Of a stretch of DNA of 64,000 bases, positions 17,641-57,041 are shown piece after piece. The stretch is from NCBI GenBank assembly GCA_030374765.1, contig JARGXX010000096.1:744001-808000 (forward strand). Direction: 5' to 3'. Each line of letters begins with the position of its first letter. Position 1 is the first letter of the stretch. The notes beneath the pieces are model-generated. The model was not told the origin of the DNA and did no database searches. It saw only the letters and a program-made list of their open reading frames with translations. The DNA comes from Agarophyton chilense (lineage: Eukaryota; Rhodophyta; Florideophyceae; Gracilariales; Gracilariaceae). The translations under genes and the position numbers were made by a program.

Positions 17641-18788
17641 CGAGGCTATCGCATTAACCTGAGCTGGTGTCGAATCGGGCGGTACTGTCTCTTAGTCCAA
17701 TTGGTATACTTCGTTCTCCTTTACCTCAGGATCATCTGATTGGACCTTACCCATAAGGTCATCCGTTTCGGTATAACCCTGAGGACCCTCATCTCTGAAG
17801 GGGGTAGGAATTAGGTCGGCCAATGGAGTGTCATCAGTTTCGTCGGTAATGATTCGCGACAGGGCATCTGCTGCCTGGTTCTTGATGCCTGGCCCAAAGG
17901 TTATCTCGTAGTCATATTCGGACAGCCTGCGGCGCCACCGATCGAGGTGACTTGATGCATCGGTCATAATGAGTAGCCAGCGGAATGAATCGTGGTCTGT
18001 CCTAATGGTAAACCTAGTTCCTTCCAGGTACGGACGGAGTGTCAATACGGACCATACGATGGCTAGACATTCCTTTTCGGTAGTACTGTAGTTTCGCTCC
18101 GCACTGGTGAGCTTTCTGCTCCAGTATCCAATAGGTCAATAATCCTTTGGTCACTCCTGTTCCTGTAGCAGTGCACATCCCACTTGGACATCAGAGGCAT
18201 CTGTATCCAGGACAAAAGGCCTATTGGGCTTTGGTAAGGCCAATATAGATGGGTTCACGAATTTGTCCATTAGGGTCTGAAATGCCGCGTACTGGTCGTC
18301 GGTGAGGGCTTTCAACTCGGAAGGTGATCCTTCCTTTAGCATCGCGTTGAGAGGGGCCAAAATCATGGCAAATTTTTGGACGAACCGTCGGTTAACATTG
18401 CACAAGCCCACAAAGGATCGTAGTTCCGTGTGGGTCCTAGGAGGTTCAGCCTGGGAAATCGTATTTGTGGTCAGTGTGGCCACCTTTAGCTTTTCTGGGA
18501 GGACGACGTGACTGAGATAGTCCACTGAGGCCTGTAAGAAAGCGCATTTGCGGAGTCTCAGTGTTTCTCCAGCGTTCTGTAGGATTGTTAGCACCTTCGT
18601 CACGTGGCGAAAGTGCTCCGTTACGGTCCGTGAGAAGATTATAACGTCATCCAAATAGACCAGGGCGATTTCTATTTGACTCTGGACAGTATGATGTCCA
18701 TTACCCGTTGGGAGGTCGCTGGGGCATTCTTTAAACCAAAGGGCATACGAGTAAATCTGAACAGACCTTCATCGGTGGTAAAGGTTGT

Positions 18789-19233
18789 TGTAACGCAATG
18801 ACGGGTTAAGTCAGCGTACGGGTCTCGACCGGTGGTAGCGTGGTAGAGCGGGTCCTGAGGTTCGAATCCTTGACACCGGCAATCCCAGAGTACTTGGTGC
18901 AATGGGCTGGCGTTTACTGCGTAGTCCTACATGTTGGGGCTACGGAAACGATGGCTTGAATACCAAAGGGTGGAACTAATATACCAAAGGGTTATTTAGT
19001 ATCCTAACAGTGCCTACCGTACTCTCAGGGAGAAGCGTCACACGAGCCAAGTAAATAGTACTGGCGAGGCGCTGAGATCTCCCTGGCACTGTAGTGTTAA
19101 TCTATTACACTAATTAAACTAAATTAATAATCTAGATGACTCCACCTGAGGTCGAACCGTACACGGGTCACCTGCAAGATCCGCCTGGGCCCCGCGGCTT
19201 ACCGGGCTCAACCGTTATTATCGCTTCTTCATA
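18789..19233 (-). repeat. Solo LTR of the D family inserted in the D RT gene
   Basis: The copy is flanked by a perfect 5-bp duplication, GTTGT at 18784-18788 and 19234-19238. Removing the LTR and one GTTGT rejoins the RT frame (ALTT to FTTDEG). So a D-family element inserted into D, and its LTRs later recombined to leave one. It is close to the 5' LTR at 22966 by eye. Confidence 0.92.
18829..18880 (+). other. tRNA-like A-box/B-box segment in LTR (copy 2, clearest)
   Basis: The segment starts CCGGTG and ends CACCGG, which can pair like an acceptor stem. TAGCGTGGTAGAG (18836-18848) resembles an A box and GGTTCGAATCC (18859-18869) is a perfect B box with a 7-base TTCGAAT loop. The anticodon arm is missing. 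It lies in the U5 part of the LTR, antisense to the element and in the aORF direction. A Pol III promoter or a tRNA-derived relic are both possible; no oligo-T stop is obvious. Confidence 0.5.
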
Positions 19234-19970
19234 GTTGTCAGCGCTCTCGCATCTTCGGCCAAAACGATTTGCCAATATCCGGAGTTAGCCTCCAGTGTGG
19301 TAAATAAGACAGCCTCGTCTAAGGAATCCAGACAGTCATCCACGCGGGGTATCGGGTATGAGTCCCTCTTGGTTACTGCGTACAGATTCCTGTAGTCGAC
19401 ACGGAACCAGATGGAGCCATCTTTTTTCGCCGCAAGGACAAGGGGACTTGCCCATTCAGAATAGTTTGGAGGGGCTGGCTCTATGAATTGAGCCTTGCGC
19501 ATCTTTTCCATGTGGTCGGCGACGATTTCCCTACCTTTAAGGCCTGTATGGTATGGGTGCTGGAACGGTGGTCTAGCATTATTCTGAAGGTCAATGCGGT
19601 TTGTAATGGCTCTGATTGTGCGCAATCTACCTGTCTACATGGCCTGGTATTCTATGAGAAGATCAAGTACCTGGAGCCTATAGGATACGAATTCTTCGCC
19701 GATGGCGACCGTCCCTTCCCAAGAGTCAACGTCCTCGTCGAGAGTTGGCTTCTCAAGGCTATCCATTTGGGCTTCCATAATGACCATGGGCGTGGGTAGA
19801 GTGATACCAATCACTGTACCTTTAGGTAACCGCACGGGTTTATCTCGAGAGTTGCTGACTGTGCCCAAAAAGGACCTCTTGGGGTGGATGTCCATTACTC
19901 CACTGGCCATCAAGGTAAGGTGCTTGAGAACCGTTTTCGGGTGGTTCTGAATCGTTACGAGACCTGAGGA

Positions 19971-20594
19971 CTAGGAAGGGAGCGATACAGAGATTTGGGT
20001 CATCGGGGGCATCGTTACGGCCTTTGACAGGCGAAGCTTATTGAACTTCGTGTTTTCGGAGACAACCGCTCGTTTTCGGTTCGCTTCTGGCCCTGGGGCG
20101 GAACCAGTTATGTAGATGGAAGGTGCGCGATAGAACGCGACATTCCTAAGGCCTGGACAAATGGCCTTGATATATCGATCGATAAAGGAGGTCCCTAGGA
20201 TTGCCTCAGCGCCCAAGTTAGGACATACAAGAAACCACGTGCGGACTTTGAATTGTCCTACCTGGAGGCAAAGTGGTACTATCCCTTTAATGTCCATTGG
20301 TCTACCAGACGCATCGGTAATCTTCGGGGTCTCCCTTGCCTGAACGAAATCTTGCCAACCCAGTGGGAGTAGCTTAGAATTGACCAAATTGAGACCAGCG
20401 CCTGTGTCCAACACAGTTGTGGTCACTCGACAGTTGCTAGAACGAAGTCTTACGGTTACTCGAACTTTATAGTTGTCTTTCCTGAGGATACAGATGGGAT
20501 CGTTATTGTGTTCCGGGTGTGGTTCATCCTGAATTGTCCGTTGTGGGTGATTCGTATTGGAAGGTGAGGAGCTCTTTGGCTCATGACCATCCAA
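19971..20594 (-). pseudogene. Element D aspartic protease
   Basis: 207 codons with the retropepsin active-site motif TVLDTGAGLNLV at about residue 60, as in element E (TVLDTGAGPNF). A downstream AILGTSFIDRY block corresponds to the ILGCDYCD stretch of E and A. The protein would cut the Gag-Pol polyprotein. The frame is open but separated from gag and RT by stops and frameshifts. Confidence 0.85.
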
Positions 20595-24989: not shown

Positions 24990-26608
24990 GGTGGACACAG
25001 TTTGAGTCAGATCCCTGAAGTAGGCACGTCATCCAACGACAGACACAGAACTAAGATCCTTCTTAGGATTTTGTAATGTTTACCGCCGCTTTGTACCGAA
25101 GTTCGCGGATATATTGGCTGCTCTTCACGAGTTTCTGCGTAAAAGGTATCCAGTGAAGATGAACCTCTTGATGAAGCACAGGCTACAGCATTTCAAATGC
25201 TTGTAGACGCGGTAACGTCTCCGACAGTTCTGGCGTTACCCACTCTGGGACTTCCGTACGCTATCGATACAGATACGAGTTCCTAGCAGATTAGGTGTGC
25301 GTTGTTCCAAACAACGCCGAGTGGATATAGAAATCCGATAGGCTACTTGTCGCGTACACTGAATGTGCATGAGCGCAATTACTCAGTATCTGAGAAGGAA
25401 TGTCTCGTTGTGGTCTGGTCGTTAGCAACACTACGTCCCTCTCTGATAAGTGATCACTTGGCAGTGCATGCGGTCCATTCCGCACTCCGATGGCTAATGG
25501 AGATTGCGGAGTCTTCAGTTCGCCTCATGCGTTGGCGTCTCCGCCTCGTGGAATTCGACTTTGACGTCGAGTGCAAAAAAATGCATCCTGAACTGCCAGG
25601 CCGATGCTCTCTCCCGGCTGGGAACAGACGACAGAGCGGAACCAGTGGATGATCTGGAGATACCATGCTTTATGGTGAACCCTACACAGAGGGAAGCCGA
25701 GTCAACTTCGGATGACTCCTGTGACGATCTATTGGCTACCGAACCGTCGAAGCCCCTTTCGGGTTCGTTTATACCGATAACTCCTGAGGAGATGAAAAGG
25801 GAACAACAGATGGACCGGTTCTGTACCCGGATCCGATCCCGGTTAAACGGAGGACATCAATTACCCTTTCAGGTCAACGACAAAGGATACCTCATTAGGG
25901 TGGTGGAATCTAACCCACAGGTAGTGGTACCTCACTCTCAGCAACAACGGGTTTTACAAATATCTCACTACGTGAAAATAGGCGCCCACCCGGGTGGAAG
26001 GATGTCATATCTAACGCTTCGCAGAGATTTCTACTGGCCAGCGATGGCATTTGACTACTATGCAGTTTCCCGAGGATGTACGGGCTGCGCTAAAAACATC
26101 GTGAAGTTACGAAAGTATTCGAAGAAACATAATCTGTTTCCGGCACGCGCCTCTTTAGAGTTCGTTGCCATCGAAAAATTGGGTCCTCTTCTACATACCG
26201 CCCGAGGTAGTTGGTTTCTTATGGTTATTACGGACCGCTTTTCGAAATTAGTTCGTACCGAACCTCTTAAGAAAATCACCGCAAATGCGCTTGCGCAAGC
26301 TTTCGTAACGCATTAGGTGTTTGTGTATGGCCAAACGATACAACTCCTCTCGGATAATGGCTCAAAATTCGCGGCGAAGTTCTTTCAGAACGTGTGCAGA
26401 ATCCTGGACATAAGAAACTTGTTTCTTACAACATATCACCCCCAGTGTAATGGGTATGTTGAACGATTCAATCGTACGCTAGTCAATGCGCTGGGATCTT
26501 ATGTCGCGGATAACCCAAAACCCTGGGATCTCTTAAAGGATGCTGTCACCTACGCTTAACGCATGCAGGTTCATCGCATAATGAAATAATGAATATCTTG
26601 CCGTTCGA

Positions 26609-28186
26609 GTTGGTGCTTTCGAGAATACCGCCGCCAGTGGCGTTGGAACCGCAACCCAGTGTGGAAACGTTTCCTTCCACGAACAACTATCGGGATACCA
26701 GGCAGAAGGGTTTGAAACAGCTATTATCAATGGATACAAAGTTGATGGAGAAAGCAGAGTCCGCCTATAAGCGTAACTTCGATGCGAAGCTCAGAAAACC
26801 CTTTCCAAAGGTTAGCGCTGGTGACAACGTCCTACTGAGAGAGGAATATTATAATCCTGAACAGGAGCGCCGGCATAAGCTATCGCCGATTGCAGAGGGT
26901 CCCTACCCCGTTATCTCCGCCGATAACGCGACTGTGGTGTTGGAAATAGGTGAACGCCATGAACGAATATCGCACGATCGCGTTGTATTTGTACCAGATC
27001 CGCATGCGGAGTTGACAAGAAAACCTCAATCCGAGGCGGAATCGCCGGAGGGAACGTCAACGACGGAAAAGAATCAATTCCGCCCAGGGGTCCTCCCAAA
27101 CATGAATCGTGGTCTTTTGGATCTCCCGTTGTAGTCAGACACGACACCTACTGTCACTGGGAAGCCAGGTATTCGTACACGACCGCATTCTCTTTCTAGA
27201 TTTATCCCTGATCCTATGGTTGTGACTAACTTTAACTCCGTATCCTCACCTAAGGAGGGGGAGGAGGATGGTCAAATGTCAAGTACCAGTTCGGCTCCGG
27301 CGGCGAAACCGATTGATGGTGATACGCATCGGTCGAACGGCGACATTACGCACACTACAGTGGCAGTTTCTCCTGGAAATGGTAGAGAGGGAGCTCACGC
27401 CAGACCGGGGAACCTGGAATGTCCAGTTACAGCTGACCCCACAACCGGGACAATCGGTGCACTAGACAACGAAGACCCAGACTTCAGAATATCTACTACT
27501 ACGGAGGCTGAAGACCCTGAATAGTAGGGATAAACAGAAAGGAACTTTGAAGAACAGGGGAACCCACAAAAGTGGAGAGAAGAACAGAATCTACTTCAGA
27601 AACACCTTTAAGGGTGACGAACACGGTGCAGTGAAAAGAAGCACAACTCGTATATGCGCGGACAAACGGCATAGCCCGTAGAACTCTCGATAAGTCGCAC
27701 GGTACCGTACTGCACTGCACGCGCAGGAAAACACGACACTGTAGTGCACAACGAATCTCAGCCATTCAAACGCCCGTACAACGGCGCGTTTGAGGTTGAC
27801 CCAATAAGATTCGTTTGCACAGGGACACGTGTGGGCGGGGTCGCCGCTCCAACACGGCACATGCCGGACGTCGAGCTACACCGTCGGAACGGCCACCCAA
27901 AAAGGAAGCCGAGTCCACCTCGTGTTCAACTCGACGTTCCTCCGACGTTACCCTACGAACCTTGGCGGACCTACCCTCAATCCGCGTGAATTTCGCAGAC
28001 CTTTCAGAAGGTACCGGAATTTCTCCGCGGACTACGCCAAATCCAAAGTTGGATTCGCGTCTTCACGACGCACTGTAGCCTTCAAAATCCGTGGAAACTT
28101 CCCTAGGAAGCTCGACTTAACGCTCTAACAAAAAGGAGAACCTCAAGAAGGGGACAGCTATATAAGAGAACTCCAACGATGGCGAG
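26609..28186 (+). repeat. Right arm of the 1,578-bp inverted repeat
   Basis: This is the partner of 23412-24989 and contains the integrase tail and linker of C in the sense direction. Transcription across both arms would make RNA able to fold into a long hairpin. Both arms encode the same 102-codon frame (27216-27524 and 24382-24074) with only two differing residues. Confidence 0.92.
27249..27264 (+). other. Internal polypurine tract copy in pol (element C)
   Basis: CCTAAGGAGGGGGAGG is identical over its first 14 bases to the 3' polypurine tract of element B. It codes for P-K-E-G-E. The mirror copy is at 24334-24349 on the minus strand. Confidence 0.5.
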
Positions 28187-28824
28187 AGAATGAGAAGTCT
28201 ACCCACAAGAGTTCGTAGTTGAACGACTTATCGACTTCAATTATGAATCCAATGGAGAGATTCTTTACTGCGTACGCTGGTACAGATACTCAGTCGAGGA
28301 AGACGCTTGGGAATCCCTCAAGCACTTACTCCGCTCGAAGGTAACTGCATACCACCGCAGGACAAGAAGCGCACTACCTCCAGGTATGGAGCGCACCCAA
28401 TTGGGTTAACCGCAACCTCGAGAGAGGAGATCTCGAAGGAGAACATGAAGTAGAAGAATAAGAATCCTGGAAAGGAGAAGATGAAAAAGGAGAAGAAGAA
28501 TCGTGGAAAGAAGACGATGAAGTACAAGAAGAAGAAAAATCAACAGAGGAGAGCCCGAAGGAGAAGGAAACGATGATACTGTAGTTAAACAGGTATCCGA
28601 TCAATCGGTTTCAAAATGAAGAAGGCAAGGGAAATAAAAAAGGAAACTCAAGTGTTTACTTGTGCGCAAGTTAGTCGAACCCACTATCTATCATCCAAAG
28701 ATGGTCATGAGTCACAAGGTCCCTTGTTTTTCCGTGTCGGGTTACTCAACCTCCTGCGGAAGGACCAGCTCCGCTTTGAGTATTCTGGAAGTAACCACCG
28801 GCAGCACCGAGCAATTCCCCAACA

Positions 28825-30624
28825 TCAGTCGTATTTGGAATCGGAACACCCATGGCCTGGAGTTACGCGCAAAGCTGCGACTTGGGGAGTAATCTCACCC
28901 ATGTCAACGCTGACCTCCGCTGTAGCGGTTTCCGCATTAGTCCCCGCGGTATCGGGCGCGTTATCACCAGCCATCAATGGGTCACCCGGTTCAACGGGAG
29001 CGTTTTTCTCACCTTCATTATCCACCATTGGATCACCTGCACTATACAGTTGGATGAAATCGTCGGGAAAGACAAACCCGATGGGATGCCCAGCTGAGAC
29101 TTCGCGGTATAACTCTCGAAGAGGTTCAGCGTGAGCTGCGCTTGTGATAACACCCTCCCAAGGGTCATAGAAGACGAAGTAACCAGCTCGTGGGTACCGA
29201 CGGCCAGGAGACCTGTCGCACGGGGAAGGTCGACCGCTAGCGCGTTGCCTCTGTGGAACCTCGTCCCAATTGACGTCGTCGATAATGTCGAGGATGGGAG
29301 TAACCTGATCATCGTTAAGTTGGGATCCCAATGAAACGGAAATATCAATCTGTCTAATTCAAGATCGCAGTCGCTGCGGAAGACACCAGATTCGACATTG
29401 GTCGTAAGCCTTCCAGAGGAGGAACGCGGCAACACGGACCGTCCATTCAGAGGCGAAGATAGACCAAATCTCGGGATTCGAGGAACTCGTCAGGAGCGAG
29501 AAAGAATATTTCGCCGCAGGCGGAAGCTCCACAAAACACCCTGGAGGGTCTTCAACTGGACTCTACCAAGCGGGCAGCGGGATGTAGCGTCCTGTAAGGA
29601 ATCTCGGATGCATCCGTTCAACTTCGCCATTCTGATAAGGAATCAGGTACCCGAATAAGGACCGTGCTCGCCGCTCGAAGCGGATCATGCGATCAAAACC
29701 CTGCCGTGGGAACCGCCTTAAGTAGCGAAACTCCGCACGGAGGATTGGAAGATCTCAAGAGAGGTATCTGGTTGAAACGCCTGAAGCGGGACCCTGGGAG
29801 GGAGCACAGAATTACTCCGACAAGTTCTCTTCATACAGAGCTTTGCCCCAAGTACGGAAAAAGGACACGTCGAGAGTGCCCTCCGGTTCGAACGGTACCT
29901 CGTTGGGGGAGCGATGGTGACGCTGATAAGCGATCCTGGCCAAGACGGCGCGCGCATCGTCCATTCTTTCATTTCTCCTTCGGAATAGAGAGTGAGGTTC
30001 CACCGCAATGTGCGGTCTCCATTAGAAGGATAATACGACGGCAACGGGAAGGTCCCCGGATAGCACACCATCTTCCGCATAGGAGTTGATCAACGTGGAG
30101 TTGTTAACCGCCTCAGGACGGAACCACGGAGCCCTGGCGTATATATCCGCATCATGAACGGGATCCCTCGCCATGAAAAGCTCGCGGAAAACCCAATTAC
30201 TGGGACTGATACGCCCCCAAGGGGAGGGACCGGAAGAGTTCCACGCGGAGAGATCCAACCCAGACAATTTAGGGAGCAGCGCGGTATTGGAGCCAGTGAA
30301 AGCCTCCGTTCCACTCGGGTTGTTATTTCCCGAGGAAATCGGTACCCGCGAAATGGGGGTGTGATCGTTGAACGGCGGCATTGCTGGATGATAGTTGGAA
30401 GGGACGGAGAAGTTTGAATCGCTGAAAGCGCTGTCGTTAGATTCAACTTGAATGAACTCAACTTTGTGAGGACCCGCTATCACGGTATGAGACGCCATCT
30501 TCGCGCGCGTATGTACGGCAACTCGCGTAGAGTTATCGTGCATGTGAACACGGCGTTCACTAGCATTACGGAGGGAAAGATGTAGTGCAACGCCTTCGGC
30601 GATATTCCGGTGTTGGATACTCAT
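28825..30624 (-). pseudogene. aORF of element C: antisense accessory gene, broken
   Basis: A 200-codon N-terminal block (30624-30022, from an ATG) has a Ser/Pro-rich start and then IYARAPWFRPEAV, LINSYAEDG, LSGDLPVAV. A badly decayed middle (30080-29440) follows. The C-terminal block (29331-28825) has DQVTPILDIIDDVNWDEVP, a CDRSPGRRYPRAGYFVFYDPW stretch, GHPIGFVFPDDF and an acidic run. The conserved LREVGL...MRDAL tail of B and E is not readable. The aORF stop is 416 bp from the pol stop. The motif order is the same as in A, B and E. Confidence 0.78.
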
Positions 30625-45149: not shown

Positions 45150-46015
45150 TGTAGGACAATGCCCCCAAGGAGGAAAACCTACGAAGACGTCTGGATCTTC
45201 TTCTCACGAGGTAACCGGCGCGGTAGAGCCCTCCAAGGGATCGGCGCGCAATGCCGGGTGTAAGCCGGAGCCGAACCGTCGCGACGGGCGCAGGGAGGCT
45301 GAAAGAAGCCGAGAATATCCGCGTAATGCGGTGCTTGCGTATCCTCTGAGGAGGCAAAACCCACGAGAGGGGCGAGCACGACAGGTGCCAGTGCGAGCTG
45401 CAAGAGCGGGAATTGCCCAATGAAGGAGAGGAAAAGGGAAGGAAAATGGGAACGGAGGCAAGAGGGCGAGTTTGACCACGAGTCGCAAGAGGGGACTCGG
45501 GAATAGCCGGCACTGCCGGGTGTAGCAAACCGTATACACGGGCGGAACCACGAAAGTGGGAATAGATACCCAACACACGAAGGCTGCTTGAACGTCCAAG
45601 GGGGTTGGGAAGCCGTGCACTACGGGAAATCCCTCCGTAAGGAGTTGTATATCCGCGCAGGCGGTTCGACCCAGAGCCAAGATCTGGAAGACCAAGATCA
45701 CCCTTGTTGGGGAGACTTTACTGGACCGGCGGCCGTGAAGCCGGCGGCCTAAGTACTGTAGTCACCGTAGAATAGAATAAATAAAGTCTATCCTAAATAG
45801 CTAAATGTCCGTCTAACAAAAGGGGCCAATCTGGCGGCCACGTGTCGCGCGGGCACTGCGGCCACGTGTATGGCACCCGGTCCCGCCGGTGCATCACCGG
45901 CGTTCCGGCCATCGCCGTAAATACGGATTACTCCTACTCATAACGAGGTTGCACGCCGGAGGCTCCGGAAAAAACTTAAGTCCCCAAAAACCTCCCTGGA
46001 GGACGTTGCTCTTCA
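45150..46015 (-). repeat. 3' LTR of element E (866 bp)
   Basis: TGAAGAGCAACG to TTGTCCTACA on the minus strand. By eye the outer 340 bp or so (45680-46015) is identical to the 5' LTR, while the inner part differs at about two dozen sites. TATA-like AT stretch near 45770-45790. GC-rich inverted sequence near 45725-45750. Confidence 0.93.
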
Positions 46016-46028
46016 TATCCCCCCCCTT
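46016..46028 (-). other. 3' polypurine tract of element E
   Basis: On the minus strand TAAGGGGGGGGATA precedes the LTR start TGAAGAG. Position and core match the tracts of A and B. Confidence 0.88.
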
Positions 46029-46062: not shown

Positions 46063-48405
46063 ATGGCAGCTCGTCATGATAAGAGCGCGTCCGACACCGG
46101 GTCTCCGGAAACCAACACACCTTCACCAAGGATCCCACGCACGCTCTCCGCATTCGATTCCAACCACAGCACACCAACACGCACCATGTCCAACCCCGAC
46201 CGTCATAACACATCCGCGACTCCCGCCCTTGGCGGTTCCACCGGCTTCCGGTCCGCGCCCCACCCTGGGGATGTTACCAACCTCGCGTACGAAGACCGCC
46301 GTATTGGCGCCCACTTTCGCGGACAGGCGGACCCACCGCAGTGGCCGACCTACGACGCCCTTGTGGGTGCAAATCCGAGAACTCGGCATGGCTCCGCGAT
46401 GTTGCGGTATGCGCCTTGGTTTCACCCATTGGCTGTCCGCGACGAGGATTTGATCCACTCCTACACCGATAATTCGGAGAGGCTCCCGGGCGACCTGCCC
46501 GGCGTGGTGACCATGTCCTGGGATTGGCGTAATCGTATCGCCATCCCGGTACACCACATACTCCGCCGACGCGGTGAATCCTCTGCGAAGGCTCAGGCCG
46601 CGCTTGTGCGGATCGCTTATCTCAGGCACCATCGAGCGCTTTTCGAGTTCCCGATACCGCCAGAGGTCGAATTCGACGTCCACCTTTACCGCACTCGCGG
46701 GGAAATGTCGTACTGTGACCGTCTTAACGGATTGGAAACCCTCGCTTGGAGGGGCACACCGATCGCTCGGAAAGAAGCCCTTTGCTGGGGACGACCGATT
46801 CTTCGGGCAGAGTTCCGCTACCAACCGCGGCAGTCGCGCTCGAACTTTCTTCAGAACTTCATCCGCGATGAGCGGCGTTGGCGGGCCCAGACCGGGTATT
46901 TCGTACCGTATGTAGTATGGTGAATCCGAGCGGGTTGTCAGGTAAGAAGGGCGTGGTCAGGACTGAGTGCAAGTGGCCTGGTCGCACACGTGTGCGAAGA
47001 TGGCACACCGGACGGACATGTACAGTAGGTTAACACGTAGCATAGTTGTAGGTAGTTGGCATCCCCCACCCCGTGATATTTCTGCCACGTGGGTGCAGGC
47101 GCCACCACGGACTGTAATGCGGGTTGCAGCTTGGAGATGCACACTACTTATGCACCTCCGCTCCCCGCCACCCTCCAAACAGTAAAGGGTAAGCACCACC
47201 GTCCTAGTCTAAGTATCGTTTCTAAAGCAGACCTGAAGCGTTACTTCGCACGGGATATCTACAGGTTTACAAGCCGTTCGGACTCTTCGCGCGTACCTCG
47301 ATCGCGCCTGACGTTCCCAACCGCCTAGTCTCCCTACGACCGCCCGGTGCTGGCGCTCGTCTCCACGCGGCACCGTTCCCCGACCGGCCTCGTGTGACAC
47401 GCAGGCCCCGCTTACGGACTCCGCACGGATCGCGCCTCTAGAAAACTTACACGCCTTTCGGCGCTTTCTCACACCGTACCAGAACACGGAGATTGAGCGC
47501 ATCGCGCCTGCTCACCGACGTGGTCGGTACGTCAGTCTCCCAGACTGGTGGTCCTCCTTGGAGGCGTGCTGGGGTTGCTTCATTGAGCTGCCCCCAGACT
47601 TCATCTATGTAGGGTCGTCGTTCTTGAACGATCCCCAGTCGGGGTGGTGGTCCGTCGTGTTAAGCGAATGGGCCGTCCGCACTGCGGCTTTTATCCTCGC
47701 TGAGGCGTACGACCAATACCGATTGTGGTACCTGCCACCGCGTGTGCGGGCTGCGATCCGCCGTTTGGACATGCGCATCCCCCTCGGGGGCGAGGCGAAC
47801 GAAGAAGAGATGCTGGGCCTCCTCGACTTTGTGGAGGGGGTCCAGTGGGATGAGGTCCCGCTGGAGAACTCCAACGCATTCAACCGCGTCGCGGGTCTGG
47901 CCCCGGATTCGGGAGGAATACCGCGCTAGCGGGGGATTTCGTCTACTTCGACCCCTGGGAGTACCACGAGATCAGCCGCGAGGAAGCGGAAGCCAACCGG
48001 CATGCGCCGCGTGAAGTCCCGGCCGACCACCCGCGAGGGTATGTCGACTCGAGCGACTATTACCGCGGCTATGTGGATGGTGACCCGATGGTCGACAACG
48101 AACCGCAGGATTCGGGTTACGCTCCGATGGAGGATGACGAGTCCGGCGAGGCCGGTGAGGGGTCCGTTGAATACGGTGGTGCGGCTCCATCCGGGGCTGC
48201 TGAGGCCGTGCGAACGGATTCCTATCCGACTCCATCGGTGGCGGGCCCGCCCGCAACTGCCGCTGGCGCGGAGCGGGGCGAGGTCATCACGCGCTTCCTT
48301 CGGGAGGTGGGGCTTCGCCCTTCCGAGATCTCGGGTGATGTGGCCGCCATGCGGGATGCTTTAGCCAACCGCCTGGGCGGGGGTCCACCTCGTGCGGAGG
48401 AATGA
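46063..48405 (+). pseudogene. aORF of element E: antisense accessory gene, split by a solo LTR
   Basis: From ATG 46063 (or ATG 46186, in CACCATGTC context) the frame runs to 46910. A 563-bp LTR interrupts it, it resumes in frame at 47479 to about 47890, and then a one-base shift leads to the last block ending at 48405. Total about 600 codons. Motifs in order: PTYDALVGANPR, APWFHPLAVRDEDLI, LPGDLPGVV, SYCDRLNGLETLAWRG, EALCWGRPILRAEFRY, FLQNFIRDERR, GYFVPY joined to QNTEIERI, GRYVSLPDWW, IELPPDF, DPQSGWWSVVLSEWAVR, EAYDQYRLWYLPPR, VQWDEVP, AGDFVYFDPW, an acidic stretch, and FLREVGL...GDVAAMRDAL. No known domain. AATAAA at about 48463 may end the transcript. The frame is open from 45889, inside the LTR. 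Confidence 0.85.
46911..47473 (+). repeat. Solo LTR inserted in the aORF of element E
   Basis: 563 bp, TGTAGTATGG to TTTCTCACA, flanked by a perfect CCGTA duplication (46906-46910 and 47474-47478). Its start resembles the LTR of element A. Removing it and one CCGTA restores the aORF frame through the conserved FVPYQNTEI motif. Confidence 0.9.
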
Positions 48406-48737: not shown

Positions 48738-50144
48738 TTATCCCTCTTGGGCGTTTACCAGCGTGGCTGGGAGTGCGGTCCCCGCAAGGCGGTGGTATCG
48801 CATTACCGCAGAGCGCGGGAGGTGCTCGATGGGCTCTGGGGTGTCCCACTCCGGCCCGTATCCGTACCAGCGGGTCCAGTACTGGAGCACCCCGTGCTCA
48901 TCGTTGCTATATCCGACGATCCGGTCGAGGACGTAGTCCTGCACGTAAACTTGCCGGCCTTGCCGGGTGGTGGTGACTCGAGGCTCAGCGCCGCGTGGTG
49001 CTGGGCTCGTCTTCGCCTGTTCCGGGTCACCCGGTTTTTCATTCCGCTCTGCGGTTGTTGCCGGGTTGCCGGGGCTGCTGTACCGCTTCGCGGAAGTTGC
49101 CGGCGCGGGCGGGTTGTGTTTCCGCTGGGCGGTAGGGGCTTCCCTGAAGTCCGCTCTTACCGCGAGTTTGCGGGGGTCCTTCCGTCTTGGTGACAGTTTG
49201 CCGGAGGCCTCCGCTTGATTGGCGGTATGCGGCGTTCCCATTGGTGGGCAGTTTCCGCTGTGCGGTGCGCCGTGGGCGGTGAGTGGTTCACCGTCCCGGT
49301 GATCCAACTCCGCGGGGTGGCTGTCAGCCAATGACCGGGACGCCGGGTGCCCATTGGTCCGATCTCCTGCCCGGGTCACGTGACCTTGAGGACGGGTGGT
49401 CGGACCGTGGCGGACGGTTGGCTCCGATTGTTCGGCAAGGGAGGCGGTTTTCGACTTGTCGTCGCGCCCCTTTTCCCCCATGGGGTTCGTACCGTTCTCA
49501 ACGAAGTGGCTCGCTAGACCTGCTTGCGCCGCGCCCGCCGGGGTACCGGTATCGACCGAAACGCTCGGTGTGCGACCGCGAATATGCGGGGAGCCCTCAG
49601 TTGCTTCCGCGCGGTGCAGGGCGTCCGTAGGGTCTTGCTTCCCGGCTTCGGGTCTTCGAGCGCCTTGGTCCCCCTTGCGGGGTCGCGTGGCGGTCGGGTT
49701 GACCGCCGCGTCCCGCGGGAGCGGATTGGCGTCCGGCGACGATGCCGGTTGCCCGCTCGGGGGCCTTGCCCGGGGTGTCCGGTTAAACTTCCGTTGCGAC
49801 AGCGATGCTTCCGCGATTGAGCGGGTCCCCTCCCCCTCCTTAGACGGAGCGACGGGTGATGGTGGGCTAACTGCATGGCGGGTATAAATACCGCTGCGCG
49901 GCGCCCGTAAGGGTAGCTGGCCGCGAGGGCCAGGTGTTTCCGGCATTGCCGGTGGTTCCGATAAAGTCGGTATATCGGAGAGACCCCGTGAGGGGTGCGG
50001 TACCACGGCGGGGCGTGGTGCCACCGTTGTACCCGTGGTATCCGAGTCCGTTTCGACGGGGGCTGATGCGTTTTTCGCCGGCGGCGGTGGGGCGGCTACG
50101 ATGCGGTCTTGTGAAAGACCTTCGTGGTCGCCGTTCTTGTCCAC
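48738..50144 (-). pseudogene. Element E pol end: linker and chromodomain
   Basis: The frame 50144-48738 starts within the remains of the GPY/F region (GDHEGLSQDRIV). A long Pro/Ser/Thr-rich linker follows, with SKEGEG encoded by the internal purine tract. The chromodomain is near 48915-48770 (VLDRIVGYSNDEHG, RWYGYGPEWD, HLPRSAVMRYHR). By comparison with B, about 30 codons of the GPY/F module between REYYNP and GDHE are missing, together with a frame change from the preceding block. The chromodomain keeps its aromatic residues. Confidence 0.9.
49827..49843 (-). other. Internal polypurine tract copy in pol (element E)
   Basis: On the minus strand CTAAGGAGGGGGAGGGG encodes K-E-G-E-G. It matches the internal tracts of B and C, and resembles the 3' tract of E (TAAGGGGGGGGATA). 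Confidence 0.5.
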
Positions 50145-51442
50145 CCGGTCCGGGGGTTGTAGTACTCCCGGCGAACGAACACGTAGGTTCCCGGCTTGGG
50201 CGGTGCCGGTAGTGGTCCGCGTAAGCGGTTATCAAAATCCCGCTTGTAGGCGGCCTGGGCACGTTCCATGGACTTCCGGGCGACCGGTACGAGCTTGGTA
50301 AGCCAGTTCTTCCACTTGAGGCGGTATTGACCCACGGATGGGAAAGAGTTGACCCTGTGTTGGGGTTCGACCGCCACTGGCGGGGGTGTCCTGGAGAGCA
50401 CAAGCTCGAAGGGAGTCAGACCGGTTGTCCGATGAACCTGCGTGTTGTAGGCGTAGGTGATAGCATCAGAATAAATGTCCCACGTCATTGGGTGATCGGA
50501 TACGTAGGAGCGTAGCGACGCGAGTAGGGTGCGGTTGAAGCGTTCCACCTGCCCGTTTGTTTGCGGGTGGTAGGTGGTAGTAAACAGGTTCTTGACGTCG
50601 AGGATGCGGCAGACGTCCTGAAAGAACTTAAAGGCGAACTGCTTACCGTTATCGGATAGAACCTCTATCTGAGGGCCATAAACGAATGCCCAGTGCGTAA
50701 CGAAGGCGTTCGCAACCGTGAAAGCGGTGATCTTCCGTAAAGGTACGGTGCGCACCAGCTTCGAAAAGCGGTCAGTGATAACCAAGAGGAACTTGTTTCC
50801 CTTGCGCGTCTTGAGTAGAGGCCCGAGAATGTCGATTGCGACAAACTCGAGGGGCGCCCTTGCGGGGAAAAGCTTCATCCGTTTGGAGTGCTTCCGGAGT
50901 TTCACCCGGTTCTTTGCGCATTGGGTGCAGAACTGCACCGTAGCGTAGCAATCAACCGCCATAGCGGGCCAATAAAAGTCCCTTCGCAGGGGTAGATAAA
51001 GTTTTCTCCCACCGGAGTGTCCCCCGAGGGTCGGGTAGTGTGAGAGGTGGAGCACCCTGGTTTGCAGGGTGTGGGGGACCACGATCTGGGATCGGTGGTC
51101 CACCGTCCGGACGAGGTAACCGATGTCGTTTACCTCGAACGGGAGGTCCTCTCCACCGTTTAGGCGGGCCCGTACGCGCGTGCAGAACGGGTCGCCGAAC
51201 TGTTCTCGGATCATCTCCTCGGTGGAGATGGGTACAAAGGTCCCGGGTACGGGTGTTTCATTCTCGCGCGCTGCGAGTAGCTCATCCATTTCCATGGTGT
51301 CTTCCCCGGTTTCGGGCCAATCCGACTCCGTCGGTGTTTCCCCTTCCAAGGCAGCACGGGATCTCGTCGACCTCCGGGTCGGCAAGTGCTTCACCTGTCG
51401 TAGGTAATCGAGAGAGGGCGTCTGCTTGGGTGTTCTGGACAC
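50096..51442 (-). pseudogene. Element E integrase
   Basis: An N-terminal linker follows the RNase H, reached by a frameshift near 51300-51440. The H2C2 zinc region (HLSHYPTLGGHSGG, CTQCAKN) lies at about 51030-50910. The catalytic core has all three acids (AIDILGP, LSDNGKQF, QVERFNRT) at about 50835, 50665 and 50545. The core end (YAYNTQVHRTTGLTPFELVLSR) and the helical WLTKLV...ERAQAAYKRDFD follow. It ends in REYYNP and then runs out of frame where the GPY/F module is deleted. This is the only complete catalytic integrase core among the copies in the window. Confidence 0.92.
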
Positions 51443-52604
51443 CCTTCTTGTAGACGACCTCGAAGTTGAATTCCGCTAAGCGGAGGCGCCACCGCATTAA
51501 GCGGCCAGAAGGTTCTGCGATGTTCAGCAGCCACCTCAACGAGGCATGGTCCGTGTGTACGGTGAAATGAACGTCCATGAGGTATGGGCGCAGAGTGGAT
51601 AGCGCCCAGACCACTGCGAGGCACTCCTTCTCGGAGACCGAGTAGTTGCGCTCGTGGACGTTCAGCGTGCGGGACCAATAGCCAATTGGTTTGCGTTCCC
51701 CCTCGGGGGTGGTTTGGAACAGTGCGCAGCCCACCTGGTGGTCGCTGGCGTCGGTGTCGATGGAGTAGGGAAGCCCAGGTTTGGGCAAGGATAGGATGGG
51801 AGCTGTCGTAACTGCCTTAATCAAGGAGCGAAAAGATTCCGACTGATCGGTGGTAAATGGCGCAAGCTTCGGTGGCTGGCCCTTCCGCAGTAGCGCGTTT
51901 AGCAGAGCGGCGATATCCGAGAAACTCGGTATAAACCGTCGATAGACGTTGACCAGACCTAAAAAGGATCGGAGCTCCGTTTGAGTACGGGGCTCCTTCG
52001 CCTCGCAGAGGGACTTGATACGAACTTCTTCGATCATTAACCGTCCTGGACGGATGACGTGCCCGAGATACTTCACCGTGTCGGTGAAGAACTCGCACTT
52101 CCTCAACTTGAGGGTTATTCCTGCGTCTCGCAGTACGGTTATCACGTCCCGCACGTGGGTCAGGTGATCGTCCAGGTTTCTGGAAAAGACAATGATCTCG
52201 TCCAAGTAGACAAGGCACGTGCACCACTTGAAACGCGACATCAGTATGTCTACTGCCCTTTGAAAGGTGGCCGGTGCATTGGTTAAACCAAACGGCATCC
52301 GCTTGAAGCGGTAGGAACCCGAGTGGAAAGCAAACGCGGTTTTGTCTCGGTCCTTTTCCCGGACTGGGACTTTCCAGTAGCCCCAGTTATCATCCAGAGC
52401 CGTAAACACGGTAGCATCCCCGAGCGAGTCTATACACTCGTCCATGCGCGGAATCGGGTAGGTGTCCCTCACGGTGACGGCATTGAGGCGGCGGTAGTCA
52501 ACGCAAAATCGCCACGTGCCGTCAGCCTTGAGGGCCAGCACCACCGGTGAAGCCCAAGGAGATTGGGCGGGCTCGATGACTCCAGCCCGGAGCATCTTGT
52601 CCAC
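51282..52604 (-). pseudogene. Element E reverse transcriptase and RNase H
   Basis: 440 codons in the same frame as the protease, separated from it by one TAG (52619-52617) where relatives have Ile. RT motifs: SPWASPVVLALKADG, RFCVDYRRLNAVTVRDTYPIPRMDE, RMPFGLTNAPATFQRAV, and the active site YLDEIIVFS. The second Asp of the YxDD box is Glu, which should strongly reduce or abolish polymerase activity. RNase H: DTDASDHQVG, SEKECLAVVWAL, HTDHASLRWLL, QADALSRL. It ends in a shifted tail after VDEIPC. Confidence 0.93.
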
Positions 52605-52616
52605 CTGAAATTCTTC

Positions 52617-53940
52617 CTACTCCCGAGCTTTCGGTCCCGCCCTGTAAGGGGGTTGTGCAACCCGACGTGCGTCTGTTAGCAAGTCTATCCGATGTTCGGT
52701 TGTCTTGATCTCACCCAGTGAGCCGTCCCACATTGTGGTAAACTCGCGTAGCATTCCGCGTAAGCGGTCCCGGTGTGAGACCGGTACATGACTCAGGTCC
52801 AGGTCCTCGAGGGCCTTGATCGGGTCTATCTTATCGTAGCTCGTAGGCTGTGCCCTGGTGTCAGGTATGGGAACCGACGAGGTCTGAAATGCATCCGTCT
52901 TGACGGTTTTATCGAGCGCCAACTGCTGTGCCTCCCCGGAGGTTTCTGCACCGGATACCGGGAGACCATCCTCGGTAGAGGGAGTTATTCCGAGTACTTC
53001 GGCAGCCGTCACCTTTGTAGGGAGCATCGCGAGCGGGTGCGGCGTCACAGACCCAATGACTTGGTTCTTTGCCAGCGTCTGGGGAGCCTTTCTCAGATTG
53101 GCAACCAACACCCTGAAAGGGGAATTTGGCGTGACTTGCCCGATTCCGTTCGCAACGGTTAACTGAAATTTCTCGTACAACGAGGGCAAGGGCTGAACAA
53201 CCCGAAGACCGTGTTGACGAGAATTGACTGAAACCATAACCTGGCTCTCCGGGGGTATGGTGACTGACGAGGCAACGCGTAGCTTCGTAGAATCCCGGTT
53301 CGCCGGTGTGGGTTCCTGCGCAGCAGGTAGAGGAACGTGTTTCTTCGATGCCCGCTTCAGCGGTTGACGAACAATGGGGACGGTCGATCCGTCCTCAAGT
53401 TCCACCTGCTTCAGGCGTGGGCGGATGGCGTCGACAAAACTGTCGCAGTAGTCACATCCCAGTATAACTGGCGCGGCCAGAGAGTGGCACACAATAAAAG
53501 TTAGTTTAACCACCATACGCCCTAGCCTGACGACCAGGTCGATCACACCAACCGTTTTCAACGGGTTGTTGTTGGCGTCTGAGACGTCGGGTACCGTTTC
53601 AGAACGGATGAGTGACCGCAATGGCGGGGGTAACACCGATTCCACAATAAAGTTTGGCCCAGCACCTGTATCCAGGACAGTGAGATATCTCACCATAAAC
53701 TGCGTGTGCAGACCAAGGTCAGCGTAAACCTTGTAGTTACGCTTGGCCATTACCAAGACTCTATCCGGGATCCGGTTATTTCTAATCCGTATCCACGGTC
53801 GACGCAAAACACCGAGGTGTTTAGAGTCCGCGTCTGCGGTGTCCTTCCTTGTCAGGATTTTCACCGGGGAGCGAGGCATCGGGGCCTCGGGCGTCGTCAG
53901 CCTCAACTCTGAGGACGCCTCTCCCGAAGGGGAGACTCCC
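52617..53940 (-). pseudogene. Element E protease and pre-RT region
   Basis: The frame is reached from gag by a -1 shift. Retropepsin motif LDTGAGPNFIV lies at about residue 80, with ILGCDYCDSF later. A long connector to RT contains SLGEIKTTEHRIDL and QPPYRAGPKARE. The matching part of element A starts the window. The frame ends at TAG 52617. The protease cuts Gag and Pol into mature parts. Confidence 0.9.
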
Positions 53941-53954
53941 TCTATTCTTTTCCC
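53911..53954 (-). promoter_or_regulatory. -1 ribosomal frameshift signal between gag and pol (element E)
   Basis: On the minus strand the heptamer GGGAAAA (53954-53948) lies in the X-XXY-YYZ phase of gag, one codon before the gag stop TAG. Five bases later a stem-loop starts: outer GAGG/CCTC (53942-53939 with 53914-53911) and an inner 6-bp stem TCTCCC/GGGAGA with a CTTC loop. The -1 frame is open directly into the protease. This is the classic layout of retroviral -1 signals. Confidence 0.8.
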
Positions 53955-56032
53955 TGTACAGGGTCCTGGTCGGGCGGAGGCCCGACTTCCTCGGCAACGA
54001 GTGCATGATTCCGTTGCACGGTAGCTACCGCAGGAGTGGGTTGAGATCCACCAGCGTGGTTTGGCGCTGGTGCGGCGCGTGCCGGCTGAGCCGGTTTGTA
54101 CCGATAATTCGGAGTGTGAGCCAATGCGTTGGGGAAGTCCGTCTTCGCGCGGAGATATGACGTGAGTGGCACGGAGCCCTTCTCCTGCGGGGAGAGGGCT
54201 TCGTAATTATCCACCACTCGCGCCATATCGCGTAGCGATAAAAGGCATTGCGGGGAGGTGTGCCCGCGCTCGTAGCACAAGTGGCACACCAACGTCACTC
54301 CCGCGTTTCGCGGTACGGCATTCCGAGCATCGGTGTATCTTCCGGGTTCTCGGTTTCCAACCCATCCAGGGCGCTGACTTCGTGTCATTCCGTTCGAGTA
54401 CGGCATACGGGGGGCCGGAGTGCGGCGGTCATTAAGATAAAAGACCTGCCCGTTCTCCGTGTCCCTTGTGGTTGAGTCAACCGAGCCATCCGTCGTAGAC
54501 GGTAATTCCGTTGTCGGAATAGATAAACCATCGTGATGGATGACATTCATATTGTCATAACCCTGTTTGGGGATGCCATCCGTCGCAAATGACGGTGGAG
54601 AAGAGTCCGACTCAAGCAGCAATGCTTTAGCGGCCTTCGACCGGGTTCCCGGATTGCGTTCACGTAGTGCATCTCCCTCTGCGCGGGGAAACTGTACGAG
54701 TTCAAGGTAGGTCACCTTCGGCTCTTGTTCCCTGTAACGGGCGACAAGAGTCTTGATGGCTGGATCCAAGCCATCAATGAACGTCGTACAGCGTTCCCCA
54801 GCGGGGTATACATTACCACAACGGTAGAAAGCCTTATTCAGGCGTACCGAGTAATCGGTCTCGAGCTCGCCGGAGCGTTGTCGAGTGTCTCGCAAAGCGA
54901 GTATCGCCGCTTGTATCGCGGAGTTGGTTGCGTAGGAACGCAGGAGGTACTGTACGGCCTCGGGCCAGCAGGTCACACCTCCTTCGGAGGCTCGCGATGA
55001 GCCCCGAACCGACAAAAACTGATCTTTAGCGACACCCCGTAGAAAGTAGGGTAGCTCCACGTAGGCTTGTCCTTCGTTCATTCCGAGTATATCGGCTTCC
55101 GCTACAAAGCGGTGTAGGAAATCCAAGACCAGAATTGGATCATCCCCAGTAAACGACTTGTTACGAAGTGAAAGCTGCATCCGCTTGATGCAGTTTTTCA
55201 CTTTACCCGTGTCACGCGGTGTCCGACCTAAAGAGGAATCTTCTAGCCGGTAATACCGGTAGGACAGGAGTGTCCTGTACAGAGGGTTGGTGGGCTTCAA
55301 GGGTTTGAGGGCCGGATGTCGCCGACCCTTGGGGCGCGACCGGATGGCCCCGTAGGTGGCAGAGGACCGCTTTGAGCGGGAAGAGCGCCCATAACGATCC
55401 CGTGGGTCATCGCTCACCGACGAATCGGAACTCTCCGAGTCACTCGGTTTACCGTCCGACTCAGATGATGAGTCGGACGGGTGTCCGTGCTTACGGTTAG
55501 AATCCCGGTTCTTCCGGCTCTTCCGGTTCCGCGACTGGGTCTCTCGATGAGAGACAACCGGTCTAGCCGCGTTCGCGGGCGAGGTTAACGTCCTCTCGAC
55601 CGACTCAAGTCGGCTTCGGAGACGCTCGAAGCGATTCTCCATACCATCTGCGAAGGAAGACGGAGCCCCAAAACACTCGAGTAGTGTATTGACGTCCGAC
55701 CGCAATACGCGGATATCCTCGGCTAACTCACTTGGAGGGGGGTTAGCGAGGCTTCCTCGTAAAGAGGTGAACTCCCTCGAGAGGGTATTGTGAGCAGCCT
55801 GCAGGGAGCGGAGCTGCTCTTCCAAGCGTACAATCCGCGCTTGGTCGACCAACCGCGGAGGCGGAGAAACCACCGTTGCGACGGTCGTTAACCAGGAATC
55901 GGGCTGCGGGTCTTCAGTGCCGGTGACCGGTATCTCCCGGGAATCCGGTGTTGGAGCCAAGGCCTGTGGAACATCAGTGTCCCTGGCATCACCGCTTTGG
56001 CGGGAACGGCTGCGTGTTGCAGGAGGCTCCAT
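53942..56032 (-). CDS. Element E Gag
   Basis: 696 codons from the first ATG at 56032; the frame is open 10 codons further up from a GTG. The N-terminus is Arg/Ser-rich. A helical segment (VRLEEQLRSLQAAHNTL) could form a coiled coil. A basic, Ser/Asp-rich region follows. The gag domain is about residues 260-470 (DDPILVLDFLHRF, EAVQYLLRSYATN, RLNKAFYRCG, TFIDGLDPAIKTLV). A CCHC zinc knuckle reads CHLCYERGHTSPQC (C-X2-C-X4-H-X4-C). This is the only intact gag in the window. Gag builds the particle and packages RNA, and could supply defective relatives. Confidence 0.92.
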   Translation of the reverse strand: MEPPATRSRSRQSGDARDTDVPQALAPTPDSREIPVTGTEDPQPDSWLTTVATVVSPPPRLVDQARIVRLEEQLRSLQAAHNTLSREFTSLRGSLANPPPSELAEDIRVLRSDVNTLLECFGAPSSFADGMENRFERLRSRLESVERTLTSPANAARPVVSHRETQSRNRKSRKNRDSNRKHGHPSDSSSESDGKPSDSESSDSSVSDDPRDRYGRSSRSKRSSATYGAIRSRPKGRRHPALKPLKPTNPLYRTLLSYRYYRLEDSSLGRTPRDTGKVKNCIKRMQLSLRNKSFTGDDPILVLDFLHRFVAEADILGMNEGQAYVELPYFLRGVAKDQFLSVRGSSRASEGGVTCWPEAVQYLLRSYATNSAIQAAILALRDTRQRSGELETDYSVRLNKAFYRCGNVYPAGERCTTFIDGLDPAIKTLVARYREQEPKVTYLELVQFPRAEGDALRERNPGTRSKAAKALLLESDSSPPSFATDGIPKQGYDNMNVIHHDGLSIPTTELPSTTDGSVDSTTRDTENGQVFYLNDRRTPAPRMPYSNGMTRSQRPGWVGNREPGRYTDARNAVPRNAGVTLVCHLCYERGHTSPQCLLSLRDMARVVDNYEALSPQEKGSVPLTSYLRAKTDFPNALAHTPNYRYKPAQPARAAPAPNHAGGSQPTPAVATVQRNHALVAEEVGPPPDQDPVQGKE

Positions 56033-56157
56033 GCTAGGCGGTTTCCTTGGAATTGGCCACACCGTCTCGACGGAAGAATAGAAAGCAAACCGGTGAGACC
56101 GGAGAAAACCCGTTAAACGGAAAACAACCTCAGAGAGGACACAAGCGGTCTTGACTT

Positions 56158-56176: not shown

Positions 56177-57041
56177 TGTAGGACAATGCCCCCAAGGGGG
56201 AAAACCTACGAAGACGTCCGGATCTTCCTCTCACGAGGTAACCGCCGCGAAAGAGCCCTCCCAGGGATCGGCGCGCAATGCCGGGAGTAAGCCGGAGCCG
56301 AACCGTCGCGACGGGCGCAGGGAGGCTGTAAGAAGCCGAGAATATCCGCCGAAGCGGTGCTTGCGTATCCTCTGAGGAGGCAAACCCCACAAGAGTGGCG
56401 AGCACGACAGGTGTCAGTGCGAGCCGCAAGAGCGGGAATTGCCCAATGAAGGGGAGAAAAAGGGAAGGAAAATGGGAACGGAGGCAAGAGGGCGAGGTTG
56501 ACCACGAGTCGTAAGAGGGGACTCGGGAATAGCCGGCACTGCCGGGTGTAGCAAACCGTATACACGGGCGGAACCACGAAAGTGGGAATAGATACCCAAC
56601 ACACGAAGGCTGCTTGAACGTCCAAGGGGGTTGGGAAGCCGTGCACCACGGGAAATCCCTCCGTAAGGAGTTGTATATCCGCGCAGGCGGTTCGACCCAG
56701 AGCCAAGACCTGGAAGACCAAGATCACCCTTGTTGGGGAGACTTTACTGGACCGGCGGCCGTGAAGCCGGCGGCCTAAGTACTGTAGTCACCGTAGAATA
56801 GAATAAATAAAGTCTATCCTAAATAGCTAAATGTCCGTCTAACAAAAGGGGCCAATCTGGCGGCCACGTGTCGCGCGGGCACTGCGGCCACGTGTATGGC
56901 ACCCGGTCCCGCCGGTGCATCACCGGCGTTCCGGCCATCGCCGTAAATACGGATTACTCCTACTCATAACGAGGTTGCACGCCGGAGGCTCCGGAAAAAA
57001 CTTAAGTCCCCAAAAACCTCCCTGGAGGACGTTGCTCTTCA
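56177..57041 (-). repeat. 5' LTR of element E (865 bp)
   Basis: TGAAGAGCAACG (at 57041) to TTGTCCTACA (at 56177). It is next to the primer-binding site, so it is the 5' LTR. The U3 part is identical by eye to the 3' LTR and the R-U5 part is not. Confidence 0.94.

What the first reader, a model, noticed from the sequence alone, without database searches (positions are those of the whole stretch)
46063..48405. A conserved antisense gene (aORF) sits downstream of pol in all five Ty3/gypsy elements
In A (4815-6612), B (8927-10796), C (28825-30624), D (14182-16258) and E (46063-48405) a roughly 600-codon frame lies between chromodomain and 3' LTR on the opposite strand to gag-pol. Stops are 360, 213, 416, 180 and 333 bp from the pol stop. 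Proteins of A, B, C and E share a long ordered motif set (APWF.P, SYCDRL, FLQNFI, FVPYQNTEI, ELPP..SY.GS, EAYD..R.W, AGDF..Y.P). Conservation at protein level across diverged copies means it was selected. I recognise no known domain. Antisense extra ORFs are described for plant Tat-lineage elements, so the concept has a precedent, but this protein may be new. Possible roles are copy-number control, RNA or particle functions, or host interaction; all are inference.
Basis: partly seen in the sequence, partly recalled or inferred. Interest (0 to 1): 0.92.

Follow-up and report, generated by a model that had tools for sequence, protein, structure and literature searches.

The report
Backwards gene in seaweed jumping elements
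Jumping elements found in hundreds of copies in a red seaweed's genome carry an extra gene, written on the opposite strand next to their end repeat, for a protein that selection has kept and that matched no known protein family or solved structure in the searches made.

Summary
The finding is real. Each of the five Ty3/gypsy elements in the window has a relic of the same antisense gene between pol and the 3' LTR. None of the five window copies is an open frame; the E copy carries a solo LTR and a frameshift. Elsewhere in the same 80-Mb genome the frame is intact many times: 78 of 150 listed E-type places and 45 of 77 listed places of a second type ('640') are open over about 600 codons. Selection acts on this frame, not on the reverse one. 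Type D is a remote homologue. The nine named relatives outside are all Gracilariaceae red algae. No credible Pfam, NCBIfam, PHROG or PDB match was found, and a good AlphaFold model has no PDB fold match. In E the start codon lies 47 bp from the 3' LTR, just past the polypurine tract, so the antisense promoter most likely lies in the LTR (inference). The architecture has precedents in plant Retand elements (TRP28), Grande and fungal Boty. Here the protein matches no TRP28 profile and the elements bear chromodomains. Best reading: a new variant of a known kind, probably a nuclear accessory regulator; function untested.

The parts
46063..48405 (+). aORF of element E (relic: interrupted by a solo LTR, frameshift near 47880)
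   Evidence: ATG 46063, stop 48405
46911..47473 (.). solo LTR of another element inserted in the E aORF, TG...CA, 5-bp duplication CCGTA at 46906-46910 and 47474-47478
   Evidence: alignment with copy L006 breaks here; the sequence is listed in 40 places of the genome (this one included), many in same-strand pairs about 6-11 kb apart
45150..46015 (-). 3' LTR of element E (U3 start faces the aORF); presumed seat of the antisense promoter
   Evidence: 97.3% identical to 56177-57041
46016..46028 (-). polypurine tract of E, sense AAGGGGGGGGATA, abutting the 3' LTR; lies in the presumed aORF leader
48738..54024 (-). pol of E (protease motif, RT, RNase H, integrase, chromodomain end), in several broken frames
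53942..56062 (-). gag of E, 706 aa, with CCHC zinc knuckle; no similarity to the aORF protein
56177..57041 (-). 5' LTR of element E
4815..6612 (-). aORF relic of element A (three frames)
8..4404 (+). pol relic of element A with chromodomain end at 4225-4404
8927..10796 (-). aORF relic of element B (two frames)
7285..8711 (+). pol 3' part of element B with chromodomain end at 8478-8711
28825..30624 (-). aORF relic of element C (several frames)
25164..28406 (+). pol relic of element C with chromodomain end at 28194-28406
14182..16258 (+). aORF relic of element D, remote homologue of the others
16960..20501 (-). pol relic of element D (no chromodomain matched)
13299..13733 (-). LTR-like repeat on the aORF side of D, repeated at 22966-23400

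Best explanation
The aORF is an accessory gene of chromodomain-bearing Ty3/gypsy elements of Gracilariaceae red algae.

Shown: it encodes a protein of about 590-620 residues in types A, B, E and 640 (about 680 in D), under purifying selection between types E, B, A and 640. The protein has a Ser/Thr/Pro-rich N end, an arginine- and aromatic-rich, mostly helical core of about 325 residues, an acidic stretch and a short helical hairpin at the C end (helices are from a model). The gene lies antisense between pol and the 3' LTR.

Inferred: because the start codon lies 24-81 bp from the LTR and polypurine tract in four types, the mRNA starts inside U3 of the 3' LTR, so one LTR serves as sense promoter at the left end and antisense promoter at the right end. 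The protein works in trans as a nuclear, nucleic-acid-associated accessory factor that tunes element transcription, RNA fate or integration, comparable in role to what is proposed for TRP28 proteins, Grande GENE23 or HTLV HBZ.

My odds: real selected gene 0.95; LTR-driven antisense promoter 0.65; nuclear regulatory role 0.35.
For: Intact frames; in the 20 E-type copies fetched because their frames looked long, the frame is 607-685 aa stop to stop and E-type LTR sequence lies directly upstream in 20 of 20, partial in L019. Strand-specific linkage: 76 of 150 RT places have an aORF hit within 9 kb downstream on the opposite strand, median 4.86 kb, against 1 on the same strand downstream, 1 upstream on the opposite strand and 0 upstream on the same strand; three shifted controls gave 1, 2 and 1. 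Selection: variants shared by two or more of 20 copies are 47 N to 35 S in the aORF frame, 0.53 of the neutral ratio (p 0.004), against 1.20 in the reverse frame; single-copy variants 0.92. Between-family codon positions 1 and 2 are 49-65% identical, position 3 28-37%. Start anatomy; ATGG start context in types E, B, A and 640. Model: 358 of 488 residues at pLDDT 70 or more, pTM 0.71. D type has PPKKRARL or PPKKRTRL near its C end in the two copies fetched. D also diverges most in pol, in line with shared descent of gene and element.
Against: No RNA or protein data were available, so expression and the LTR promoter are unproven. The LTR boundary was checked by an LTR pair only for E; in A, B and 640 it is read from the PPT-like motif, in A by eye, because the tract is interrupted and the script's rule (9 pyrimidines) did not list it. 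Window C shows no such motif before 30624 and no ATGG there; D has about 450 bp between LTR-like repeat and ATG. The pol control in the same copies showed weaker constraint (shared variants 0.87) than the aORF, perhaps because copies were picked for long aORFs; it is not a clean positive control. Within-family dN/dS is only 0.44-0.80 (5 pairs), as expected for mostly dead copies. Net charge of the core is near zero (-5 to +6 in 8 proteins), so nucleic-acid binding is not obvious, and the basic runs of types A, B, E and 640 lie in the core, not in a clear separate nuclear signal. The basic run is altered in window D.
Confidence: 0.55

Rival explanations
1. The gene is real but structural or packaging-related: the protein joins the virus-like particle or binds genomic RNA in the cytoplasm.
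For: A helical core with low-complexity tails is a layout also seen in capsid proteins (inference); the conserved C-end hairpin could multimerise.
Against: The elements have their own gag with zinc knuckle, and the aORF profile does not match it (hhalign probability 0.05%). No solved fold, capsids included, matches the model. Antisense expression would separate it in time and amount from gag (inference).
Confidence: 0.2
2. The antisense transcript, not the protein, is the selected product: it pairs with gag-pol RNA and limits copy number.
For: Convergent overlap of transcripts is built in; PMC7264820 (passages seen) raises dsRNA control for plant antisense ORFs.
Against: Constraint is codon-wise in one frame: amino-acid identity about halves in the reverse register and third positions vary most. 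An RNA-only role does not predict this, though both roles could coexist.
Confidence: 0.12
3. The protein counters host silencing or otherwise serves the element against the host.
For: Fits any multi-copy element; hundreds of copies are listed.
Against: No sequence or fold hint; nothing tested here separates it from the nuclear regulator.
Confidence: 0.15
4. The antisense frame is a shadow of a sense-strand gene in the same register (a 411-aa sense frame overlaps it in many copies).
For: A sense frame of 394-417 aa overlaps the aORF in 14 of the 20 E-type copies, a shorter one (260-341 aa) in 5, none of 230 aa or more in 1.
Against: In the sense register shared variants are not constrained (1.20 of neutral; 3 stop changes among 82) and identity between families is 16-26% against 33-49%.
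Confidence: 0.02

Closest known systems
Retand lineage of plant Gypsy elements, antisense TRP28 (PF04195) ORFs (PMC11963269)
   [quoted passage not shown] conserved protein of unknown function; also proposed as DNA-related regulator.
   Different: Retand is non-chromovirus and TRP28 is reported from flowering plants only. No PF04195 match was listed at E up to 10 in the 18 aligned proteins or in type representatives 640, A, B, D and E. Here a chromodomain is present and the host is a red alga.
Maize Grande gene23, rice RIRE2, bean PvRetro13 antisense ORFs (PMC7264820, passages)
   Same: Position and orientation; GENE23 is reported nuclear and its antisense transcript expressed.
   Different: In Grande the promoter is reported upstream of gene23. 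Here only 24-81 bp separate ATG and LTR in four types, pointing to the LTR itself. Sequences not compared here.
HTLV HBZ antisense gene
   Same: Antisense gene at the 3' end, promoter inside the 3' LTR (as cited in PMC7264820).
   Different: No sequence comparison was made; HBZ features are recalled or taken from reviews; different host and element class.
Boty of Botrytis and Sclerotinia (fungal Gypsy with antisense ORF, PMC7264820, passage)
   Same: Antisense ORF between pol and 3' LTR outside plants.
   Different: Not compared by sequence; no details seen beyond the review passage.

Membership tests
Ty3/gypsy LTR retrotransposon | LTR pair, PPT, gag with zinc knuckle, protease-RT-RNase H-integrase order | tested here: met
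   for E and copy L012; protease by motif only
Chromovirus (chromodomain-bearing Gypsy) | chromodomain at C end of integrase/pol | tested here: met
   PF00385 at residues 1722-1768 of 1786 in L012, E 0.0012, 19.2 bits, below the curated cut-off 25.1; homologous end found in A, B, C, E, not D
Chromovirus (chromodomain-bearing Gypsy) | RT phylogeny inside the chromovirus clade | not tested
   no RT tree was built
Retand/Tat lineage with TRP28 | TRP28 domain PF04195 in the antisense ORF | tested here: not met
   hmmscan of 6 proteins and of 18 alignment members, E up to 10 (filters drop most matches above about 0.1), no PF04195; profile-profile or fold comparison with TRP28 was not possible
Retand/Tat lineage with TRP28 | non-chromovirus element (no chromodomain) | tested here: not met
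   chromodomain end present in A, B, C, E; not found in D
Antisense additional ORF between pol and 3' LTR (aORF-3R class) | conserved ORF antisense to gag-pol, between pol and 3' LTR | tested here: met
Antisense additional ORF between pol and 3' LTR (aORF-3R class) | antisense transcript and protein made | not testable with these tools
   no RNA or protein data
Envelope-like third ORF | transmembrane segment | tested here: not met
   best 19-residue hydropathy is under 1.6 in 20 of 22 proteins; P0017 1.63 and D (L028) 1.82 just exceed this customary limit (limit recalled); also on the wrong strand for env
Nuclear Ish1/HeH-type C-end motif | Pfam Ish1 match at the C-end hairpin | tested here: inconclusive
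   1 of 18 members (P0008), E 0.092, 13.5 bits against cut-off 26.6

The most novel reading that the evidence does not exclude
Red-algal chromodomain retrotransposons independently evolved an LTR-driven antisense regulatory gene, a counterpart in logic to HBZ and to plant TRP28, encoding a protein with a fold not yet seen in any solved structure, which runs the life cycle of elements that are abundant in these genomes.
Probability: 0.3. Interest if true: 0.85.

Novelty: new variant of a known kind. Interest (0 to 1): 0.66.

Why it matters
Antisense extra genes at the 3' end are described for plant Retand-type elements and a fungal Gypsy element, without an established function (PMC11963269, PMC7264820). 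A further setting, in red algae, with a protein that matches none of the known families and a start codon next to the LTR, suggests that this position favours repeated invention of antisense genes. The many intact copies and several diverged types make promoter, localisation and function directly testable in a cultivated seaweed group.

Tried and rejected
Host gene or known domain: Pfam, NCBIfam, PHROGs and PDB sequences gave nothing credible. The seven Pfam families listed for the 18 members are all weak; the best, E3_binding (5 of 18, best E 0.029), lies in the core, and in the members seen singly it and Ish1 (1 of 18, E 0.092) are far under their cut-offs. PDB one search listed one row at E 3.

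Relation to the element's own gag or pol: no support (hhalign probability 0.05-0.15% with three pieces). Sense-strand gene in the same register: opposed. Envelope-like protein: made unlikely by strand and hydropathy (20 of 22 proteins under 1.6).

The first structure model (P0001, 7 rows) was poor, mean pLDDT 44.6, and was not used. C-end profile against PDB: best row E 0.0011 with no stretch passing on its own, a repeat protein; taken as chance. A scan of bacterial and archaeal genome contigs found no relative; it says nothing about algae. Nine paper searches ran. The rows they listed, often only the first 8-20 of more, hold no paper on this gene in red algae. Papers opened: PMC11963269 (abstract, sections 3 and 12, part 1 of 2 of section 11), PMC7264820, PMC10388701 and PMC12502185 (passages). 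Not tried: RT tree, RNA evidence, direct comparison with TRP28 sequences.

Full report
Observation. The window is part of an 80-Mb genome in 135 contigs. Element E has LTRs at 45150-46015 and 56177-57041 (97.3% identical), gag with a zinc knuckle, a protease motif, and RT, RNase H and integrase domains, and on the other strand a gene from ATG 46063 to stop 48405. tblastn with one E-type pol (copy L012) finds pol relics opposite the aORF in A, B, C, D and E, ending in the chromodomain part in A, B, C and E. The chromodomain itself is a sub-threshold Pfam match in L012 (E 0.0012).

State of the five copies. None is open throughout. A, B, C and D break into pieces in different frames. E is cut by a 563-bp solo LTR (46911-47473) flanked by CCGTA, a sequence listed in 40 places of the genome, this one included, and has a frameshift near 47880.

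Copies in the genome. Searches give capped lists. With an E piece 150 places were listed of 1695 candidates, with A 150 of 1406, with D 150 of 746, with C 150 of 1070 (most of them type 640 at 29-42% identity), with B 93 of 1849, with the Gracilariopsis protein 77 of 1823 (type 640). Of, 119 of 150 places have no stop in the match and 78 of these have at least 590 codons open, 54 of 77 have none and 45 have at least 600 codons. Type D is more decayed: stops are common, though frames of 748 and 698 codons were found. The 20 E-type copies fetched were chosen for long frames; there the aORF is 607-685 aa, stop to stop, with E-type LTR sequence directly upstream in 20 of 20, partial in L019.

Geometry control. 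For 150 RT places and 207 aORF hits (77 of 77 and 130 of 150), 76 RTs have an aORF hit within 9 kb downstream on the opposite strand, median 4.86 kb. One has a hit on the same strand downstream, one upstream on the opposite strand and none upstream on the same strand. Shifting the RTs by 60 kb, 120 kb and -60 kb leaves 1, 2 and 1. Since the aORF lists are capped, 76 of 150 is a lower bound for these RTs, which are themselves the best-scoring 150 of 3134 candidates.

Selection. In 20 E-type copies, variants seen in one copy only have a non-synonymous to synonymous ratio 0.92 of neutral (299 N, 130 S), as expected after insertion; the neutral spectrum comes from 131 single variants in the LTR end and the spacer. 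Variants shared by two or more copies have 0.53 (47 N, 35 S; binomial p 0.004; Fisher against single variants p 0.02). In the reverse register the shared ratio is 1.20 with 3 stop changes. The same test on pol gave 0.96 and 0.87, weaker than in the aORF; these copies were not chosen for intact pol, so I do not read this as pol being unconstrained. Pairs within families have dN/dS 0.44-0.80 (5 pairs; D lowest). Six pairs between families E, B, A and 640 have 33-49% amino-acid identity, codon position identities 49-63%, 53-65% and 28-37%, and dN/dS 0.21, 0.26 and 0.28 where dS is finite (2.3-2.8, near saturation), 3 of 6 being saturated. Read in the reverse register the same codon pairs give 16-26%.

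Type D. A profile of 18 relatives against 7 rows of D (two copies and five window pieces) gives probability 91%, E 1e-6, score 59.3 over 202 collinear columns. Reversed D scores 17.8. With the smaller 9-row profile the real score is 46.0 (probability 72%) and the best of 60 column shuffles 16.0. An earlier comparison with fewer rows gave 29% and E 5.7e-4. D is also the most diverged in pol (about 40% in RT, 27% in integrase).

Who has it. Three searches of 5.8 billion proteins found in all 18 proteins. Nine are named: one Gracilariopsis chorda, seven Agarophyton chilense, one Gracilaria domingensis; all three are Gracilariaceae. Nine are unnamed. Each search scored only about 8000 candidates, so absence elsewhere is not shown. 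The Agarophyton protein P0002 is 90% identical over 502 residues to the A-type copy L024, so the genome is probably Agarophyton chilense or a near relative; the published Gracilaria chilensis assembly is 76 Mb in 138 contigs (PMC10388701, passages). This is inference.

Start anatomy. In E the sense polypurine tract AAGGGGGGGGATA abuts the 3' LTR, and the antisense ATG follows 47 bp past the LTR. A like motif stands before the ATG in types B, 640 and A, leaving about 35, 81 and 24 bp; there the LTR end is read from the motif only, in A by eye. All four start with ATGG. Window C shows neither the motif nor ATGG at 30624, and D has about 450 bp. With so little room in four types, the promoter is most simply placed in U3 of the 3' LTR. 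This is inference; Grande, by contrast, is reported to have its promoter upstream of gene23 (PMC7264820, passages).

Function. Shown: position, strand, selection, types, model. Inferred: LTR antisense promoter and a nuclear accessory role. Support for the nuclear role is thin: analogy with GENE23 and TRP28, a basic run in the two D copies fetched, and one weak Ish1 match.

Known kinds. [quoted passage not shown] PMC11963269), Grande, RIRE2, PvRetro13 and Boty (PMC7264820). This case is the same architecture with a protein that shows no TRP28 match, in chromodomain elements of red algae. Hence new variant of a known kind.

Noticed in passing
window 46911-47473: A solo LTR of another element with 5-bp duplication CCGTA sits inside the E aORF; the same sequence is listed in 40 places of the genome.
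   Followed up: yes
window 43965-44830: An E-type LTR in opposite orientation lies about 320 bp from E's 3' LTR (97.5% identical).
   Followed up: no
window 41140-42342: Tandem array of a 129-bp unit inside a 1280-aa open frame (38809-42651, +).
   Followed up: no
window 32801-33628: Open frame with a Seipin domain (PF06775, E 2.6e-18), probably a host gene.
   Followed up: no
window 23412-24989 and 26609-28186: Inverted repeat of 1578 bp, 96%, that overlaps pol of element C; suggests an inverted second copy of part of C.
   Followed up: no
window 33938-36484: 848-aa open frame on the minus strand without a Pfam match at E 0.01.
   Followed up: no
window 13299-13733, 18789-19219, 22966-23400: Three LTR-like repeats around element D; the middle one lies within its pol relic.
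   Followed up: no
L004 and L013: E-type copies with both LTRs (98.4% and 98.0% identical), about 9.0 and 8.8 kb long against 11.9 kb for E, so internally shortened copies that keep a long aORF (they were chosen for it).
   Followed up: partly
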